Virus record (IMG/VR): IMGVR_UViG_3300030101_003119
Span: 1 to 27,492 of that record
Source of the DNA: a virus
Reading direction: 5' to 3' (one strand)
DNA: 27,492 nt
The notes under the pieces were generated by a model. The model was not told the origin of the DNA. It saw only the letters and a program-made list of their open reading frames with translations, and did not search any database. Below, piece after piece: positions 4,289 through 17,663 of the stretch (its first letter is position 1; every line of letters begins with the position of its first letter). Position numbers and translations under genes: made by a program.

Positions 4289-7200
4289 ATGGCAATAGTT
4301 GTTAAAGATAGGGTAAAGGTTTCAACCACTACCACTGGTACTGGAACAATTACGCTTGGTTCCGCAGATCCTGGTTTTCAAACATTTTCAGTTGTTGGTG
4401 ACGGAAATCAAACATACTATGCAATTACGTCTGGAAATAACTTTGAAGTTGGTATTGGTACTTATACACATAGTGGAACGACTTTAAGTAGAGATACAGT
4501 TTTAGAAAGCTCTAATTCAGGAGCAAAAATAACATTAGCAGGTACATCAACAGTCTTTACAACTTATCCTGCTGAAAAATCATCATTTAGAAATGTTGGT
4601 ATTGCCAGAGATTATACTGCAAGTGGTTCAATAACAGCAGGCAAGCCATTAATTCTAAACGCTGATAATACTGTTACACAAGTTGGTACAACAACTGTTG
4701 CTTCAGGATTAGGAACATTATCTACAAATACTGTTAGTAATGCAGAAGAAGGTCAAGTTGCAATGGGTGCAACTAATCAATTTGTAAATTTATATAGAGT
4801 AGCAAATACAACTAATATGTATTTAACACCTAATACAATTTCATCAACTGATTTAAAAACAATAACTAGAGGTACAACTGCTAATTTTGATGCTGGAAAA
4901 GAAAGAAATGCAGGTATAATTTATGAACCAAACCAAGATAAATATGTGGTGATTGCATTAAATAGCAGTGATTATCTAACTGCTACAACTGTTACTTTTA
5001 GTGGTACAGGTTCAAGTGCTACATTAACACTTGGTACACAAACTGTAATAGATTCTAATGTGTGGTCAGGAGGTGGCTTTACAAATGCTAATATAACTTA
5101 CGATACAACTGCACAAAAAATTGTAGTATCAGGAACAAAATCAGGAGCAAATAATGGAATTTGTATTGTAATTAATTTAGATGGTACAACTTTTACTCAA
5201 GGTAGTAGAACAACTATACCTTTAAGCTCAACAAGTTTATACGCATCTGATGGAGGTATTTTATGTTCTTATTCTTCAACAGCAAATAAAGTGGTATTTT
5301 TACATTGTGAAAACAGTCAAAGTGATAGCACAGCAATTAATTATACAAATGTAGGTACAGTATCAGGAACAAGTATTTCTTTTGGTTCAGCTCAAGCTGT
5401 AGGAAATCCAGTAGATACTGGTTACTCTAATATGTGTTTAGATACTACTTTAAGCGTAGATAATAACGGTGTAATTGTAATTACTTATTTATCTCAATCT
5501 TACGCTTTATACTCACAATCAGCTACATTAAGCGGCACTACTTTAACATGGGGAAATACATCACAAATATCTAATATAACTGTTTTAAATGGTGCTTTTG
5601 GAGAATGTGGAAGTGTTAAAATAGCAAGTGGCAAAACTATAATTGTAAGAGCAACTAAGTCTGACAGTCCATCAAATGCTAACAAAGGTATTTTTTGTGT
5701 AATTACAGTATCAGGCACAAGTGTTACGAATGGTTCAGTACAAGAATTTTCCTCATCAGCTACACGCTATCCAAATGTAAGTAGTAATTATTCTAAAACT
5801 CAAGCTTTAATTAATTTTGGTTCAGGTAGTGAAAATAATATTATATTTCAAGAATCTGCACAAACAGGTGAATCTAACCTAACTAATGATAATTACTTCG
5901 GTATTGCATCTTCATCAGCAAGTGATACGGCAGCAGTAGGAGTAAATAGGCCAGGATCTATAAACATAGATCAAACAGGATTAACAGCAGGTAAAGATTA
6001 TTACGCAAAAGATGATGGTACTATTATTGAAAGAACAACCACATCAACTACAACTAATACATTTGCGACTGCAACAATAGAATCTTTAACAACTGTAAAT
6101 CCTTCTGCAAGTCAAAAAATAGATATAATTTATGATACGCATAATGATAAAGTATGGGCTTATTCAAAGGATAGTGATAATTCTAATTATCCAACGGTTG
6201 TTGTAGGAGATATTTCATCAGGAACAAGTATTACATGGGGAACACCTGTAACTGTTACAAGTAATTCTTATGCTCCAACAGGCATTCAATCACAAAGAAA
6301 TTTAGCAAGTGATGGAGCAGGAAATATACTTGTTGCTTATAGAGATACATCTAACGATTATGCAAGGGTAAAAGTTGGTAATTATTCTGGTACTAACAGT
6401 GCAACTTTTGGAAATGAGTTACAACCAGATAATATTAGCGCATTACAGACAATAGACATTGGTTACTGCTCATCGGCTAATTTGTGGTATATGTTCCATG
6501 GCAATAGCACATCAACTAAATGGGTATTGATGAAACAGAATAGTGGTAATAAAAACTTTGATAGTTCTGATGTAGGAACATTACATACTGGTAATGCAAC
6601 TGGTATAAACAATGTTTATACTACTAATAATAAAATAATTGTTGGATTAGATGCGACAGGTAATGGCAAATTTTATGTTTGTAATACGAGTGCAGATGGA
6701 TCAACAAATACTGGTTATACTTTAAATATAGGAACAGTACAAAATATAACTATCACAAACAATAGTAGTGCAGATGGTCGATTAAAAATAATAACAGATA
6801 CAACTAATAATAATTATATTTTAATAGATAGCACTGGTTCAACTGGTATGAATTGTTCTGTTATTACAGAGAGTAGTGGATCATTAACACAGTCAACTCC
6901 ACAGGGTGTTGCTAGCAGTAGTGGTACAATGGCAGGTAATACAGCTTTCTATAATCCTAGCGATCAAAAATTTTATGGAGCATATCAAGTACACACAAGC
7001 CCTTATGCTTGTAAAAATTATTTACTAACTGTATCTGGTACAACTTTTACTTTTGTTGATGGTGTTGATATGCCAAATGCAGATGATCGAGGTCTATGGA
7101 CACAAGGTATTTATATTGCTGATATAACTAAGGGTGTTTTTGTAGGTCAAACTAATAATGGTTACGATTTGTTAACAGCAATAATGAATATTAACTCAAC

Positions 7201-8779
7201 AACTTCAACCACAATTAACGCATCTCAGTTTGTCGGTACAGCACGATCAGGAACAGATTTAGAATTAGCAGAACCACCAACAGAATTAGTTGGAATAGCG
7301 AATGGTTCTATTACTAAAGGTAATGCTGTAGTGGTTAGAAGCGATGGTGATTTTGAAACAATTAAACTTGTGACCTCTACTCCAGTTACAAACACAGGTA
7401 CAGCCTCGCAAGGTTCTTTAGGAAATATTGACCCTTATACGCAAGATATGTTTTGCATGGCAGTAGCTTCTGATGGGGTTACTTATTGCTTTACATATCA
7501 AAATTCAACAAACAACTATCAAGCTTGTAAAATTGGCACAAGGTCAGGCGAAACTATAACGTGGGGTAGTGAAATAACTTTATCTACAGATACAAGTTCT
7601 GATTCTCATTTCTGCTCTTATGATGCAAATGCAAATGTTTTTATAACATCTTATGCGACAGGTAATACAATTAAATCTACTGCTGTATCTTTTTCAGGTA
7701 ATGCAGGAACAAAAGGCACAGAAGTTACAATGATGGACTTAGGTAGTTCTTCAGGTAGTCCACAATATCATTATCAACATTGGTACGACTCAACCAATAA
7801 AGTTACTGTATGTTGGGCTAATGGTGGTGTAAGCGGTAATGACACAAATAGAAGTTCAGCAGTTACATTAAATTTATCAGGAACAACAATAAATTTAGGT
7901 ACTTTATATGAAAATTCATCAGCAGGTGGTGATTTTCAAAAAGGTTGTGATATTACAGGTGGCAAACACGTTTGCTATTGGAAAAATTCTAGTGGCTATG
8001 CAAGTGTAATGACAATGACTGTAGCTAGTGATTATTCTATTACTTGGGGAACACCATTAGTTATAAACAGTTCTAATGCAGGTTTTTGTAATCCTATATA
8101 TAACCCTAATTACGAAAATAAAGTTATACTTGCAGGAAAAATAAAAACTTCTAATAATTATTTTAGTTATGCAGGTTTAACCATTAGTGGAACATCAATA
8201 ACAGCTTCTAATTTTTCTGATGGAAACATTAATAACGCATCATCTTATGTAGAATCAGGCGGTAACGTAGGTGTTTATTCAAATTATAGTGGAAATTATT
8301 GTTTTGTTTATCAAACATATAGTCCATATTATTCAACATATAGGTTTGCCACAACAACTGATGGATTGTCATTAACAGTAGCAGCAGCAGTAACAACAAG
8401 CGGACATGGTAACAATCAATTTTATGCAGGAGCTGTTGCAAGTGATGTTGATGCTGTTGTTGTTGAAAATCATAGAGATGGCGCAAATACTCAAATGGTT
8501 TATTATTGTTTTAATCCAACTTTTTCTTTTACTACAACATCACAAGCAACAAATTTAACAACTAATAATTTCTTAGGTTTTGCTCAACAGACTGTCGCAA
8601 ATAGAGAAGATGTTAAAGTTGCAATAATAGGTCAAACTGATAATAACCAATCGTCATTATCAACAGCTACACAATATTATCTAAATAACACAACAGGAGC
8701 CTTACAATCTACAGCAGACAATATCTCAGTCGTAGGTGGTACTGCTTTATCTAGTACAAAAATTTTAATTAAATCATAA
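4289..8779 (+). CDS. Giant tail fibre with three tandem beta-propeller-like modules
   Basis: This 1496-residue product is the largest in the window. Residues 1-105 (AIVVKDRVKVSTTTTGTGTI, then FSVVGDGNQTYYAI and GTYTHSGTTLSRDTVLESS) match a virion-attachment domain I recall from the N-termini of many marine phage fibres. Three modules of about 445 residues follow, each made of short blades of the type SGTSITWG-x-x-V and ending in a similar cap: NYFGIA at 535, SQFVGTA at 979 and NNFLGFA at 1426, followed in the first and third by LTAGKDYYAKDDGT or TQYYLNNTTGAL. About five to six blade signatures can be counted per module, suggesting tandem propellers. The C-terminus GTALSSTKILIKS is typical for such fibres. 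It probably binds a host surface glycan or protein. The Shine-Dalgarno is weak; the start is fixed by the conserved N-terminus. Confidence 0.8.
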   Translation: MAIVVKDRVKVSTTTTGTGTITLGSADPGFQTFSVVGDGNQTYYAITSGNNFEVGIGTYTHSGTTLSRDTVLESSNSGAKITLAGTSTVFTTYPAEKSSFRNVGIARDYTASGSITAGKPLILNADNTVTQVGTTTVASGLGTLSTNTVSNAEEGQVAMGATNQFVNLYRVANTTNMYLTPNTISSTDLKTITRGTTANFDAGKERNAGIIYEPNQDKYVVIALNSSDYLTATTVTFSGTGSSATLTLGTQTVIDSNVWSGGGFTNANITYDTTAQKIVVSGTKSGANNGICIVINLDGTTFTQGSRTTIPLSSTSLYASDGGILCSYSSTANKVVFLHCENSQSDSTAINYTNVGTVSGTSISFGSAQAVGNPVDTGYSNMCLDTTLSVDNNGVIVITYLSQSYALYSQSATLSGTTLTWGNTSQISNITVLNGAFGECGSVKIASGKTIIVRATKSDSPSNANKGIFCVITVSGTSVTNGSVQEFSSSATRYPNVSSNYSKTQALINFGSGSENNIIFQESAQTGESNLTNDNYFGIASSSASDTAAVGVNRPGSINIDQTGLTAGKDYYAKDDGTIIERTTTSTTTNTFATATIESLTTVNPSASQKIDIIYDTHNDKVWAYSKDSDNSNYPTVVVGDISSGTSITWGTPVTVTSNSYAPTGIQSQRNLASDGAGNILVAYRDTSNDYARVKVGNYSGTNSATFGNELQPDNISALQTIDIGYCSSANLWYMFHGNSTSTKWVLMKQNSGNKNFDSSDVGTLHTGNATGINNVYTTNNKIIVGLDATGNGKFYVCNTSADGSTNTGYTLNIGTVQNITITNNSSADGRLKIITDTTNNNYILIDSTGSTGMNCSVITESSGSLTQSTPQGVASSSGTMAGNTAFYNPSDQKFYGAYQVHTSPYACKNYLLTVSGTTFTFVDGVDMPNADDRGLWTQGIYIADITKGVFVGQTNNGYDLLTAIMNINSTTSTTINASQFVGTARSGTDLELAEPPTELVGIANGSITKGNAVVVRSDGDFETIKLVTSTPVTNTGTASQGSLGNIDPYTQDMFCMAVASDGVTYCFTYQNSTNNYQACKIGTRSGETITWGSEITLSTDTSSDSHFCSYDANANVFITSYATGNTIKSTAVSFSGNAGTKGTEVTMMDLGSSSGSPQYHYQHWYDSTNKVTVCWANGGVSGNDTNRSSAVTLNLSGTTINLGTLYENSSAGGDFQKGCDITGGKHVCYWKNSSGYASVMTMTVASDYSITWGTPLVINSSNAGFCNPIYNPNYENKVILAGKIKTSNNYFSYAGLTISGTSITASNFSDGNINNASSYVESGGNVGVYSNYSGNYCFVYQTYSPYYSTYRFATTTDGLSLTVAAAVTTSGHGNNQFYAGAVASDVDAVVVENHRDGANTQMVYYCFNPTFSFTTTSQATNLTTNNFLGFAQQTVANREDVKVAIIGQTDNNQSSLSTATQYYLNNTTGALQSTADNISVVGGTALSSTKILIKS

Positions 8780-8789: not shown

Positions 8790-9245
8790 ATGCAAACAAT
8801 AGTAAGAAATGGAACAAACATTAGTCTTTATTATTATTCAGATAGTAAAACTATAGATATTGGTTCTGATTCAACAACAATAAGTGATAGCGGTACACCT
8901 GAATTAATTATTTCAGATTGTGATACAAGCAACGCAACATTACATCAAGGTGTAGATGCTAAATCAGATTATTGGGGTTGGAAATACAAACATGATGGTT
9001 CTTCATGGTCAACTAATGCAGATTTTAAAGGTAGTAATAACCTTTCATCTAATATTAATGACTCTGTAACAACTATTCCTGTTGGTAATTCAAATCCATT
9101 TACAGCGTCTGGTACTGTACAAATAGGTGATGAAAAAATTACTTATACTGGAGTAGACGGAACAAATCTTACAGGTTGCACTAGAGGAGCTGAATCAACA
9201 AGTGCTGCAAGTCATACCTCTAATGATATTGTAGAGCAAATATAA
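8790..9245 (+). CDS. Small tail-fibre-associated beta protein, 151 aa
   Basis: The start has a perfect AAGGAG. The N-terminal half (MQTIVRNGTNISLYYYSDSK, then ELIISDCDTSNATLHQGVD and DYWGWKYKHDGSSWS) resembles a small family found beside fibre genes in marine myo- and podoviruses. The C-terminal part carries a separate module, VTTIPVGNSNPF-TASGTVQIGDEKITYTGV-GCTRGAE, a beta motif repeated in many phage baseplate and fibre proteins. There is no signal peptide. The size suggests a fibre connector or accessory subunit of the giant fibre encoded just upstream; function beyond that is not visible. Twelve bases without a strong Shine-Dalgarno separate it from the next gene. Confidence 0.65.
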   Translation: MQTIVRNGTNISLYYYSDSKTIDIGSDSTTISDSGTPELIISDCDTSNATLHQGVDAKSDYWGWKYKHDGSSWSTNADFKGSNNLSSNINDSVTTIPVGNSNPFTASGTVQIGDEKITYTGVDGTNLTGCTRGAESTSAASHTSNDIVEQI

Positions 9246-9257
9246 AAAGAATAATAA

Positions 9258-10271
9258 ATGTCCTATGGATTTGCTACATATGCTCAAGATACTTTTTCTT
9301 CTCCAGGAGTAACAGATGTAAATGTATCTGTTACAGGATTTTCTTTAACATCTTCTTTAGGAACTGCTTCTGCTGGTGAATTTGTAACTGTATTGCCTAC
9401 AGGTGTTCAAGGACAAACACAACTCAATAGTGTAACTACTCTCTTTAGTAGAGTAGATGGTGTTTTTGGAGTACAAGCAGCTTTCCAAACAATAGGGCCT
9501 TATTCAGTTCAAGCTGTTGGAAATGAAACTGTATTTGTTACTGGTAATAGTATTGCTGCTACAGCATCTTTAGGTAATGAATCAATAATATTAGGTCCTA
9601 GTATATTTCCAAGTGGAATTGCAATGGCTTCAGCTCTTGGTGATGAGTCATTAAGTGTTGGAATAACTGCTAAACCAAGACAAAATGAAACATTTAAAGT
9701 AAAAGTTAGTGGTAATGAAGGTTTAGGAAACAAATATTACATTGATGGTAATTTTGCTACAAACTTTACTAATTTTAACATGCCAACAGCTTTTCATGTT
9801 GGTTTTACTTATGTGTTTGATCAAACGGATAATTCAAACAACAATCATCCGTTAAGATTATCTACAACTCCTAATGGAACATGGAATGGTGGCGTTGAGT
9901 ATACAGATGGTGTAGTTAAATCTGGTACACCTGGATCTACAGGATCAACACAAATAACTATAACAGAATCAACTCCTTCTACTCTTTATATATATTGTAC
10001 TCAGCATTCTGGTATGGGAATGGCTATATCTATTTTACCAAGTGTTAATTTAGGAATGACATCTTCACAAGGAAGTGTTAGTGTAAGCACTGGTGTTGGT
10101 GTATTCCCAACAGGGGTAAACACAACAGGAGATATTGGTTTCGTTCAAATGAACTTTGGTTCTGATATATTCCCAACAGGACTAAGTATGACAGGAAGTG
10201 TTGGCAATATATCTCTTTGGCAAGAGGTAGATACAAGTCAAACTCCAAATTGGACAAGGATTGCTGCATAA
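9258..10271 (+). CDS. Beta-repeat structural protein with inserted plastocyanin-like copper-site domain
   Basis: The 337-residue product has three parts. Residues about 20-150 and 260-337 are short beta repeats of the form FPTGLSMTGSVGNISL, typical of marine phage tail proteins, ending in WQEVDTSQTPNWTRIAA. Between them, residues about 154-260 form a different domain: KYYIDGNF, HVGFTYVFDQTDNSNNNHPL, then TLYIYCTQHSGMGM. His197, Cys247, His250 and Met255 have the ligand order His...Cys-x2-His-x4-Met, the same spacing as the type 1 copper site of plastocyanin (Cys84, His87, Met92). A cupredoxin-like fold is therefore likely; whether copper is bound is untested. The gene lies between two fibre genes and its stop overlaps the S74 fibre start (TAATG), so it is probably a virion protein. 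The Shine-Dalgarno is weak. Confidence 0.75.
   Translation: MSYGFATYAQDTFSSPGVTDVNVSVTGFSLTSSLGTASAGEFVTVLPTGVQGQTQLNSVTTLFSRVDGVFGVQAAFQTIGPYSVQAVGNETVFVTGNSIAATASLGNESIILGPSIFPSGIAMASALGDESLSVGITAKPRQNETFKVKVSGNEGLGNKYYIDGNFATNFTNFNMPTAFHVGFTYVFDQTDNSNNNHPLRLSTTPNGTWNGGVEYTDGVVKSGTPGSTGSTQITITESTPSTLYIYCTQHSGMGMAISILPSVNLGMTSSQGSVSVSTGVGVFPTGVNTTGDIGFVQMNFGSDIFPTGLSMTGSVGNISLWQEVDTSQTPNWTRIAA
9717..10037 (+). other. Cupredoxin-like domain (His-Cys-His-Met) within the tail protein
   Basis: This is the domain-encoding segment for residues about 154-260 of the 337-residue protein. Ligand codons are CAT 9846-9848 (His197), TGT 9996-9998 (Cys247), CAT 10005-10007 (His250) and ATG 10020-10022 (Met255). 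The C-terminal loop CTQHSGMGM matches the plastocyanin loop in spacing. Flanking sequence on both sides is the protein's ordinary short beta repeat, so the domain looks inserted. Confidence 0.65.
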
Positions 10272-11488
10272 TGGCTACATTTAGTAATTTAGGTATAAAA
10301 TTAATTGGCACTGGTGAAGAATCAGGTACTTGGGGTACAAGTACAAATACAAATATGGAATTATTAGACCAAGCAATATCTGGTTATGTTAGTCATGCAC
10401 TATCAGATGCTAATGCAACTTTAGCTATTTCTGATGGTTCAAGTTCAACTGCAAGAAATAAATATATTAATTTTACTGGAACTTTATCAGCAGAAAGAAC
10501 AATAACTTTAAGCCCAAATGATTTAGAAAAAACTTGGTATGTAAAAAATGCTACAACAGGCGGTTTTAGTTTAGTATTTAAACAAGGTTCATCTGGAACA
10601 ACAGTAACAGTACCAAATGGTATAACAGCTATGATTTTTTCTGATGGTCTTGGAGCAACAAACGGTAATATAAAAAATGGTATAGGAACTCTTTTAACAG
10701 AAGGCGTTATTCCAGATGCCGATAATACACGTGATTTAGGTTCTGCAACAAATGAATGGAAAGATTTATACATTGATGGCATTGCTTACTTAGATCAAGT
10801 TGATATTGATTCTGGAACTATAGATGGTGTAGATGTCGGTTCTAATGCACCTGCTACTAATTTAACAGTAGACAATGTTAATATTAATGGAAATGATATA
10901 CAATCTACAACAAATCAATTAGCTTTTGTTACAGGTGGTTCAGCTGAAAGAATACGAATAGATAGTTCAGGTAACATATTCTATGGTGGAAGAACAACAA
11001 CCAGTGCTACAACTAATGCAACATCTTTTTTAGATACAGATACAACATATAAATCTTTTCAAGGTAGTGGTACACCACACATGACATTTTTAAATGGTGC
11101 AACAACTGTAGGCACTATTACAAATAATGGTACAAATGCGTCTTACAATACAACTTCTGATTACAGAAAGAAAAATGAGCTTGGTTATATAGAAGACGCA
11201 TGTGAAAGATTAATGAGCCTTAGACCTATTTTATACGAGTTTAAAGGTATTATTAATCCTACAAAACAAGAAGGTTTTATAGCTCACGAAGTACAAGAAA
11301 TTGTACCTAGTGCAGTAACCGGTGACAAGGACGCTGTTGATCCAGTAACAGACGCACCAATTTTACAGCAATTAGATCAATCTAAGCTGGTTCCTTTACT
11401 TACTCAGGCATTAAAAGATGCCCTCTGGAAAATCGAAAAACTCGAAGAGAAAGTGGAAGAATTAGAAGATGCCGTTAGCAAAGTTTAA
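10271..11488 (+). CDS. Tail fibre/spike with C-terminal Peptidase_S74 intramolecular chaperone
   Basis: The start chosen is ATG 10271 (MATFSNLGIKLIGTGEESGT), which overlaps the previous stop in TAATG; the upstream in-frame ATG at 10217 lies deep inside the preceding gene. The 405-residue product has an N-terminal part typical of marine fibres, then DLGSATNEWKDLYIDG and AERIRIDSSGNIFYGG beta-repeat units. From Ser296 the C-terminus is an S74 chaperone: TSDYRKKNELG, then RLMSLRPILYEFKG, EGFIAHEVQEIVPSAVTGD and a closing coiled coil LWKIEKLEEKVEELEDAVSK. In this family the domain trimerises the fibre and then cuts itself off next to the conserved Ser-Asp of SDxRxK, leaving the mature fibre. The motif is intact here. 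The 3' end overlaps the next gene by 20 bases. Confidence 0.85.
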   Translation: MATFSNLGIKLIGTGEESGTWGTSTNTNMELLDQAISGYVSHALSDANATLAISDGSSSTARNKYINFTGTLSAERTITLSPNDLEKTWYVKNATTGGFSLVFKQGSSGTTVTVPNGITAMIFSDGLGATNGNIKNGIGTLLTEGVIPDADNTRDLGSATNEWKDLYIDGIAYLDQVDIDSGTIDGVDVGSNAPATNLTVDNVNINGNDIQSTTNQLAFVTGGSAERIRIDSSGNIFYGGRTTTSATTNATSFLDTDTTYKSFQGSGTPHMTFLNGATTVGTITNNGTNASYNTTSDYRKKNELGYIEDACERLMSLRPILYEFKGIINPTKQEGFIAHEVQEIVPSAVTGDKDAVDPVTDAPILQQLDQSKLVPLLTQALKDALWKIEKLEEKVEELEDAVSKV

Positions 11489-15773: not shown

Positions 15774-17663
15774 GTGAATAACCCACCTATTATAAAACCA
15801 AAAAATTCTATATTAAGAATGTTGCAAGGTTCTGGTCCTATTTTACCTACTCCTTCCAATATTGGTGCATTAGGATTGCTTGCACTAAATCAAAGTTTAA
15901 CAAGTGATAAAGTACAAAAAAATATAGCTAAAGGAACAGAAAAAGCTCGTGGTACAAAAAACCCTTTAGTTTATGATTTAATTGATGATCCTATATTACA
16001 ACCTAATAACATTCAAAAAGATTTAAATGCACTAACATCAGATTTAAAAAATGTAAAATCTCAACAACCAAAAAAAGAAGAATTAGTTAATGAAAAAGAA
16101 ACTAATGCTGTAGAGGATATAGATGATTTTAAATCATGGATAAAACAAAATACTAAATTTGATGATGAAACAGGTGAATTGTCTTATGAAACAATTCAAG
16201 GAGAAAAAGTTCCTTTAGAAGATTCTCCTGAAACTAATGTATTATTATATGAAATTTTTAAACAAGAAACTGGACGTGGTGGAGAAGCATTAGAAGCTAT
16301 TCAAAATTTAGATATTGAACAATTTCAACAAGCTCCAGCGAGTGCAAAATTTTCTGATAAAAATCCTTTTGATGATAAGTTTTCTAAAGATTTACAATCA
16401 ATAAGAAAGAATATGGGTGTACCAAAAAATGAAAAAGACATAAGAGAGCAAATCCAAAATTTAGAACTGCAAGCTGCTCGTGGAATGGCTACACCAAGAG
16501 ATGGTAGTTTCTTAACAGATGAATCAAGAAGAAACGCTGCTGTAATGGCAACAAGAGCAGAACAATTACGATCGCAATTGCCAGAATCAGATAAGCGAGA
16601 TTTTTATTCCTACAGAAGAAAAGATAAATCAATGTTTGGTTTTGGTGATAAAGGTCAAAATGAATTTGTATTAACTCCAACTGGATTAACTCAAAGAGAA
16701 GTTTATGAGTTAACAAAAAACGGTGATTATGAAATAGGCCCAGCTGAACTTGCAAGAGAAATAAGAGGCGATGATATAGATAGGGAAGAAGAGTTTATGA
16801 GAAAAGCTATTCTTGCCGGTCGAGTACCAATGCCTGGTACACAACAACAGGTAGCTGAATCTAAACCAGCACAAGAAAAAGTTTTAATAGAAACAGAAGA
16901 ACAAGTTCCTAATAACTTTAGGCATAAGGCTTTTGTTCCTGTAGAAATTAGTGGTCTTTATTCAAGAGGAAGTAAGGATAATTTAAAATTTAGAGTTAGA
17001 ATGTTAGAAGATAAAAACACAGGAGAAGTTAAATATGTTCCTGATGTTAATTTAGCTCCTATTATAACAGAAATATACCAAGCTGAAAATTATGCTCAAG
17101 AATCTAAAGATGAAATTGGCATGATAAAAGATTTAGTTAGTGCAGACAACATTGGTTTAGCTCAAAGAGTAAATGATTTATCAAGATCAATTGCAGCTAT
17201 TGCTGGTGTTGAAAGAATAGCTTTTGACGAAAATGGAAATCAAATAATGCCTACACCTGAAATTATTGCAAGGTGGGCAAAAAGATTTACGGCTCAAAAT
17301 ATTACAACTATTCTCGGAGAATCTAACAGAACAATATCCGACGCTGATAGAAAAAGAGCTGATGATATTGTAAATGTTTTAGGAACATTTACAGATGTAG
17401 CTGGAGCAAAATTAGCGTTAGAACAGTTAATAAATATTTTTGAAGCTCCTTCTAGAAATGCTAACTCTGCGTTACAAAGTTTATATGCTCAAGGAGAATC
17501 ATCAGGGTATCTTGAAGACATAAAAGATATAGAGCGTTCTGTTTTAAATCAATTACAAAAAGGTGGGGGAGCCTTTTCAATTCCAAAATCAAGTGCTTTA
17601 CAATTTGAAGAAACAGATGAAACTGAAAACATATATGAAAGTATTGATTTAACGCAAGGTTAA
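15774..17663 (+). CDS. Large acidic helical virion protein, 629 aa (GTG start)
   Basis: The start is GTG 15774, supported by AAGGAG at 15760-15765. The first ~60 residues contain a Pro-rich start and a mild hydrophobic stretch (NIGALGLLALNQSLTS). The rest is charged, with long predicted helices and a high content of Glu, Asp, Lys, Asn and Gln. Near the C-terminus, the segment RWAKRFTAQNITTILGESNR-TISDADRKRADDIVNVLGTF is a pattern I recall from marine phage internal proteins. No enzyme motif, signal peptide or clear transmembrane helix was seen. It lies between the ejection-like 398-residue and 1320-residue genes, with one base separating it from the latter, so an internal core or ejection role is the simplest reading. 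I cannot assign a biochemical activity. Confidence 0.6.
   Translation: MNNPPIIKPKNSILRMLQGSGPILPTPSNIGALGLLALNQSLTSDKVQKNIAKGTEKARGTKNPLVYDLIDDPILQPNNIQKDLNALTSDLKNVKSQQPKKEELVNEKETNAVEDIDDFKSWIKQNTKFDDETGELSYETIQGEKVPLEDSPETNVLLYEIFKQETGRGGEALEAIQNLDIEQFQQAPASAKFSDKNPFDDKFSKDLQSIRKNMGVPKNEKDIREQIQNLELQAARGMATPRDGSFLTDESRRNAAVMATRAEQLRSQLPESDKRDFYSYRRKDKSMFGFGDKGQNEFVLTPTGLTQREVYELTKNGDYEIGPAELAREIRGDDIDREEEFMRKAILAGRVPMPGTQQQVAESKPAQEKVLIETEEQVPNNFRHKAFVPVEISGLYSRGSKDNLKFRVRMLEDKNTGEVKYVPDVNLAPIITEIYQAENYAQESKDEIGMIKDLVSADNIGLAQRVNDLSRSIAAIAGVERIAFDENGNQIMPTPEIIARWAKRFTAQNITTILGESNRTISDADRKRADDIVNVLGTFTDVAGAKLALEQLINIFEAPSRNANSALQSLYAQGESSGYLEDIKDIERSVLNQLQKGGGAFSIPKSSALQFEETDETENIYESIDLTQG

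What the first reader, a model, noticed from the sequence alone, without database searches (positions are those of the whole stretch)
9717..10037. Plastocyanin-type copper-ligand spacing inside a phage tail protein
Seen: a domain inserted between short beta repeats has His197, then YCTQHSGMGM with Cys247, His250 and Met255. Known: type 1 copper proteins of the plastocyanin family use His...Cys-x2-His-x4-Met, the same order and spacing. Inference: a cupredoxin-fold domain, possibly copper-binding, is displayed on the virion next to the receptor-binding fibres. This would be unusual: it could be a copper-dependent structural lock, a redox or metal-sensing element, or a binding domain that reuses the fold. 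I recall similar HPLRFST...YYCxxHxGM segments in marine phage and bacterial proteins but cannot confirm their annotation.
Basis: partly seen in the sequence, partly recalled or inferred. Interest (0 to 1): 0.8.

Follow-up and report, generated by a model that had tools for sequence, protein, structure and literature searches.

The report
Copper-protein-like domain in phage tail protein
A tail protein of a marine phage carries a domain whose four best-conserved residues (His, Cys, His, Met) are those that hold copper in blue copper proteins; the same domain occurs on the tails of many marine phages and in bacterial electron-transfer gene clusters, so phages may display copper sites, although copper binding itself is untested.

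Summary
ORF 9258-10271 (337 aa) has His197, Cys247 and His250, and a Met at the named place.

The domain is a module of marine phage tail and baseplate proteins (87 isolate records; more than 590 IMG/VR stretches). All four ligands are intact in 254 of 257 distinct full-length domains; the three exceptions lose 4, 4 and 2 of them. Among viral and bacterial relatives down to 25% identity, the only invariant residues are the four ligands and three glycines.

A viral-plus-bacterial profile aligns to genuine Copper-bind (PF00127) proteins with His, Cys and His in register (score 32.6; 0 of 200 permuted controls reach it). The bacterial relatives sit between triheme cytochromes, in the gene order of the Uet extracellular electron-transfer cluster.

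Not shown: copper binding, and the cupredoxin fold itself. Foldseek found no convincing PDB match (TM 0.46 or less, antibodies on top); Pfam hits are below cut-off.

Verdict: probably a real type-1-like metal site on the virion (about 0.7); its role is unknown. No description was found in the open-access library.

The parts
9258..10271 (+). 337-aa tail protein: beta-repeat N-terminal part, cupredoxin-like domain, beta-repeat C-terminal part, conserved C-terminal motif
   Evidence: ORF; PHROGs tail fibre / baseplate wedge families match
9702..10049 (+). cupredoxin-like domain, residues 149-264
   Evidence: homology to viral and bacterial domains; profile-profile match of the family to PF00127 proteins
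9846..9848 (+). codon of His197, predicted metal ligand 1
   Evidence: invariant in viral plus cellular alignment A3; aligned to the cupredoxin first His
9996..9998 (+). codon of Cys247, predicted thiolate ligand, the only Cys of the protein
   Evidence: invariant in A3; last residue of the penultimate strand in the ortholog model; single Cys
10005..10007 (+). codon of His250, predicted ligand 3
   Evidence: invariant in A3
10014..10016 (+). codon of Met253, predicted axial ligand (C-x2-H-x2-M)
   Evidence: invariant in A3 and kept in 254 of 257 full-length domains as part of the full set
   Evidence: column is Gly in 110/149, Met in 8/149
10215..10268 (+). C-terminal motif LWQEVDTSQTPNWTRIAA, shared with other short tail proteins that bear the domain
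   Evidence: regex survey
10271..11488 (+). adjacent tail fibre with Peptidase_S74 intramolecular chaperone
   Evidence: PF13884 above cut-off; PHROGs tail fibre families
8790..9245 (+). upstream small tail-fibre-like protein
   Evidence: PHROGs tail fibre / baseplate matches

Best explanation
Residues 149-264 form a cupredoxin-like domain with a mononuclear, type-1-like metal site made by His197, Cys247, His250 and Met253 (amicyanin spacing). It sits as a module between beta repeats of a podovirus tail protein, beside an S74-type fibre. Most likely copper loads into the folded domain outside the cytoplasm, after lysis, and the metal holds the Cys-His-Met loop in a fixed surface shape that takes part in adsorption or tail stability. 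Shown here: the residues, their joint conservation and joint loss, the tail/baseplate setting, and homology to bacterial lipoproteins of a cytochrome cluster. Inferred: the fold, the identity of the metal, when it loads, and the role on the virion.
For: phmmer of the domain alone against the PDB returns four sequences, all plastocyanin or pseudoazurin (E 0.07-0.6). All four ligands are present in 142/149 distinct relatives and 254/257 full-length ones, including relatives found with a query that lacked the Cys-His-Met loop. Exceptions lose several together: NSNL in L151, KGTL in S-CAM22, YCQM in L104. In A3 the only invariant columns are G16, G34, H49, G59, C99, H102 and M105. hhalign of A3 against PF00127 proteins: Prob 73.6, score 32.6, His/Cys/His in register; permuted null mean 10.7, maximum 20.7, 0/200 as high. 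Copper-bind is the family hit by most members (8/32, best E 0.0097). A P-HM2 sister domain hits plastocyanin (E 0.0025), nitrite reductase and amicyanins. The ortholog model has Cys at the end of the penultimate strand and His and Met in the next loop. Multiheme ORFs flank 16/19 bacterial relatives against 2/30 control cupredoxin loci, with TIGR04257 triheme domains.
Against: Neither AF2 model matched a cupredoxin among the 50 listed PDB hits; the top hits are Ig-type domains with TM 0.46 or less. The window's own domain has no Pfam or NCBIfam hit, and no viral member scanned was shown to pass the Copper-bind cut-off. The viral-only profiles reach just 28-34% probability against PF00127. The residue after the first His is Pro, not the Asn common in plastocyanins. 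Many loci were found through the motif itself, which inflates its conservation. No metal has been measured.
Confidence: 0.65

Rival explanations
1. Metal site, but not type-1 copper: the Cys-His-His-Met pocket holds zinc or another structural metal and only stabilises the domain.
For: The four residues are conserved as a unit, which needs a metal but not copper; tail fibres are known to use structural metals (HxH iron sites, PMC11705849).
Against: A Met at an invariant ligand position is typical of copper sites and unusual for zinc (general knowledge); bacterial relatives lie in cytochrome clusters; the sequence links are to copper proteins.
Confidence: 0.17
2. A beta-sandwich binding module descended from cupredoxins that no longer binds metal on the virion; the motif is kept for packing.
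For: Sub-threshold family scores; some sister domains in the same proteins have lost the site, so the fold can persist without it.
Against: All-or-none retention of four chemically matched residues while the rest falls to 25% identity; isolated site losses would be expected if the residues only packed.
Confidence: 0.13
3. An Ig-like (V-set) domain; 'YYC' is the Ig strand-F cysteine and the rest is coincidence.
For: Foldseek top PDB hits are antibody V domains; P-HM2 PHM2_106 is annotated with PF07686; Ig-like domains are common on phages (general knowledge).
Against: TM 0.46 or less at 5-8 A rmsd; no second conserved Cys and no core Trp, one Cys in the whole protein; V-set is not among the six families hit at E up to 1 by the 32 members, while Copper-bind is hit by 8; does not explain the invariant His, His and Met.
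Confidence: 0.05

Closest known systems
Cupredoxins / plastocyanin-azurin family (PF00127), above all amicyanin (ligand loop C-x2-H-x2-M)
   Same: His ... Cys-x2-His-x2-Met order and spacing; Cys closes the penultimate strand and His and Met lie in the loop before the last strand; profile alignment in register
   Different: Family scores below the curated cut-offs; fold not confirmed; Pro instead of Asn after the first His; sits inside a phage tail protein rather than in a free electron carrier
Bacterial ~500-aa lipoproteins of cytochrome clusters (probable UetF of the undecaheme electron transfer cluster; assigned here by gene order)
   Same: Same domain by profile (A1 against A4: Prob 99.8, E 1e-29), same four ligands
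   Different: Lipoprotein in a porin/triheme-cytochrome/NHL cluster; 'HD' in place of 'HP' after the first ligand; about 25-35% identity to the window domain
Domain in T4-like cyanophage gp9-type connector, gp7/10-type baseplate wedge and tail fibre proteins (PHROGs 693, 677, 708, 30742, 27200)
   Same: Homologous module with the same ligands in virion proteins
   Different: Annotated only as tail fibre, baseplate or hypothetical; no metal site noted in the records read
HxH iron-binding phage tail fibres (T4 gp37, R22Y; PMC11705849)
   Same: Proposed metal site on a phage tail
   Different: HxH octahedral iron motif; the window protein has no HxH (His at 180, 197 and 250 only)
PF25489 At5g54830-like domain
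   Same: A bacterial relative passes its cut-off (28.4 against 27 bits)
   Different: The window domain itself does not match it

Membership tests
Cupredoxin / type 1 copper protein | Ligands in the order His ... Cys-x2-His-x(2 or 4)-Met, conserved in the family | tested here: met
   spacing x2 (Met253) rather than x4
Cupredoxin / type 1 copper protein | Eight-stranded Greek-key beta sandwich with the four ligands clustered | tested here: inconclusive
   All-beta AF2 models with pLDDT 82 and 88 and a fitting strand order, but no cupredoxin in the 50 PDB hits shown; coordinates not available for distances
Cupredoxin / type 1 copper protein | Score above the curated cut-off of Copper-bind (PF00127) or another cupredoxin model | tested here: not met
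   No hit for the window domain; best member E 0.0097; P-HM2 sister domain 20.1 against 21.2 bits
Cupredoxin / type 1 copper protein | Profile-level homology to known members | tested here: met
   A3 against PF00127 proteins: Prob 73.6, score 32.6, 0/200 permuted; viral sequences alone only 28-34%
Cupredoxin / type 1 copper protein | Binds one copper; intense S(Cys)-Cu(II) absorbance near 450-600 nm | not testable with these tools
   needs protein
Ig-like V-set domain | Two conserved Cys (strands B and F) and a core Trp | tested here: not met
   A1 and A3 show one conserved Cys and no invariant Trp
Ig-like V-set domain | Fold similarity above TM 0.5 to V domains | tested here: not met
   best listed TM 0.46, rmsd 5-8 A
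HxH iron-binding tail fibre | HxH motifs | tested here: not met
   His at 180, 197 and 250 only

The most novel reading that the evidence does not exclude
Marine phages display working type-1 copper redox centres on their tails, related to a protein of bacterial extracellular electron-transfer conduits, and use them during adsorption, for example by docking to or exchanging electrons or copper with host surface redox or copper-uptake proteins.
Probability: 0.2. Interest if true: 0.93.

Novelty: new variant of a known kind. Interest (0 to 1): 0.72.

Why it matters
If the site binds copper, a common structural module of ocean phages (those infecting Synechococcus, Prochlorococcus, SAR11 and Methylophilales hosts among isolates) is a metalloprotein that annotation has missed. 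That would extend the idea of tail-bound iron to copper, would add copper to the virion metal budget, and would make a direct test possible: do virions carry copper, and does copper affect adsorption? It also gives a name and ligand set to a domain now filed as 'tail fibre' or 'hypothetical', and suggests that the bacterial relative in cytochrome clusters is a copper protein.

Tried and rejected
Met255 as the conserved axial ligand (plastocyanin spacing): rejected for the family. Ig V-set: rejected on Cys/Trp pattern and poor superposition. HxH iron fibre: no motif. Foldseek of two AF2 models: led to antibodies at low TM, uninformative. hmmsearch of A1 and A5 profiles against the PDB: near-empty; A3 gave several plastocyanins and pseudoazurin mixed with antibodies. 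PF00127 search of the own genome: no hit. Genome-contig scan: one MAG only. The search for related loci with the cellular alignment A4: no conserved stretch. Literature searches for cupredoxin plus phage tail, and type 1 copper plus phage virion: nothing relevant. Origin of the viral domain from the tree: few columns, long branches, not interpreted beyond grouping.

Full report
Check of the observation. ORF 9258-10271 encodes 337 aa. The named residues are present: His197, Cys247, His250 and Met255. Met253 lies in the same loop. The protein has one Cys and three His. The record is a virus contig of 34,704 bases. Around the gene are two SU10-type adaptor proteins and an S74-chaperone fibre, and a virion protein whose relatives include pelagiphages HTVC023P and HTVC027P. 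A podovirus-like virion is inferred from this.

The domain is a common phage module. tblastn finds it in 87 isolate records, mostly Synechococcus and Prochlorococcus phages, with Methylophilales and Pelagibacter phages. PHROGs place it in tail fibre and baseplate families. BFVD models give 40 fold matches at E <= 1e-3, the named ones almost all from cyanophages, many of them tail or baseplate proteins. In T4-like cyanophages it forms the C-terminus of the gp9-type connector and lies inside the gp7/10-type wedge protein.

The four ligands. In 149 distinct relatives, His197, Cys247, His250 and Met253 are all present in 142; the Met255 column is Gly in 110 and Met in 8. So the conserved set is His ... 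Cys-x2-His-x2-Met. From general knowledge this is the amicyanin spacing; plastocyanin has x4 before Met. Retrieval bias was checked: a query without the Cys-His-Met loop still returned relatives that keep it, with L103 and L104 as exceptions. Eighty of 80 gp9-type domains keep both parts. Over all loci 254 of 257 full-length domains have the full set; the others read NSNL (L151), KGTL (S-CAM22) and YCQM (L104). Loss of several ligands at once is what is expected if they work as one site.

Bacterial relatives. A search of 274 genomes found 24 with the domain: a 180-aa lipoprotein-like protein (L227), a 377-aa one (L228), and lipoprotein-like proteins mostly of about 460-550 aa (L229-L245). In the joint alignment A3, identity to the window falls to 25%, and the only invariant columns are the four ligands and three glycines. 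Viral and bacterial sets match each other at Prob 99.8.

Link to copper proteins. The window domain alone returns only plastocyanins and pseudoazurin from the PDB, weakly. A3 aligned to 23 genuine PF00127 proteins from the same class of genomes gives Prob 73.6 with His, Cys and His in register; 200 column-permuted versions reach at most 20.7 against 32.6. Viral sequences alone give 28-34%, so the link leans on the bacterial ones. Pfam Copper-bind is the most frequent hit among 32 viral members but weak. A sister domain in P-HM2 is closer to classical cupredoxins.

Structure. The window model has pLDDT 82. The L084 ortholog (75% identical) with 76 sequences has pLDDT 88, with a strand ending on Cys92, then a loop with His95 and Met98, then the last strand. 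Its strand order, with a short helix after the first-His strand, resembles plastocyanin as I recall it. Foldseek against the PDB listed antibody-type domains at TM 0.46 or less; only 50 of nearly 2,000 hits are shown and coordinates are not given. The fold is therefore not proven either way.

Functional context. Multiheme ORFs flank 16 of 19 bacterial relatives and 2 of 30 control PF00127 loci. The neighbours carry TIGR04257 triheme domains and NHL repeats. In L326 and L330 the order is: large ORF of 591-613 aa, triheme, triheme, domain protein, triheme, then NHL-type proteins. The Uet cluster is described with triheme UetDEG, NHL UetHI, a porin UetC and a UetF (PMC10734462); by order the domain protein would be UetF. 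This is my inference; the paper passages read do not describe UetF. It puts the bacterial domain in an electron-transfer setting and makes a redox metal plausible.

Mechanism. I hold it most likely that the domain binds copper in a type-1-like site and serves as a metal-stiffened surface module of the tail. A redox or copper-docking role at the host surface is possible but rests on the bacterial context only.

Novelty. The kind (cupredoxin-like domain) is known; its use as a widespread tail module was not found in the held literature, which lacks most subscription journals.

Noticed in passing
window 10215-10268; L083, L084, L026, L111, L117 and others: A C-terminal motif W-x-x-[VI]-[DN]-x-x-Q-x-P-N-W-x-x-[IV]-A-A ends exactly at the C-terminus of many short tail proteins; of 23 distinct matches to the search pattern, 20 are in ORFs with the cupredoxin-like domain. 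Possibly a docking or assembly tag.
   Followed up: partly
L326, L327, L328, L330 (around L229, L231, L237, L236): Bacterial relatives lie among triheme c7 cytochromes and NHL proteins in the gene order of the Uet extracellular electron-transfer cluster, so the domain protein may be UetF, a probable copper protein.
   Followed up: partly
L194 (P-HM2 PHM2_106), residues about 705-784 of the ORF: A second, more classical cupredoxin-like domain in the same phage protein (plastocyanin hit E 0.0025, Copper-bind just below cut-off).
   Followed up: partly
L105, L106, L110: In these contigs the domain is interrupted between the first His and the Cys by inserted sequence.
   Followed up: no
L227 (G177): A lipoprotein-like protein of a 1.2-Mb bacterial genome carries the domain and groups among phage sequences in the tree (90/89 support), hinting at exchange between phage and host.
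   Followed up: no
window 4289-8779 and 15774-17663: Large virion-region ORFs (1496 and 629 aa) without any PHROGs match at E <= 1e-3.
   Followed up: no
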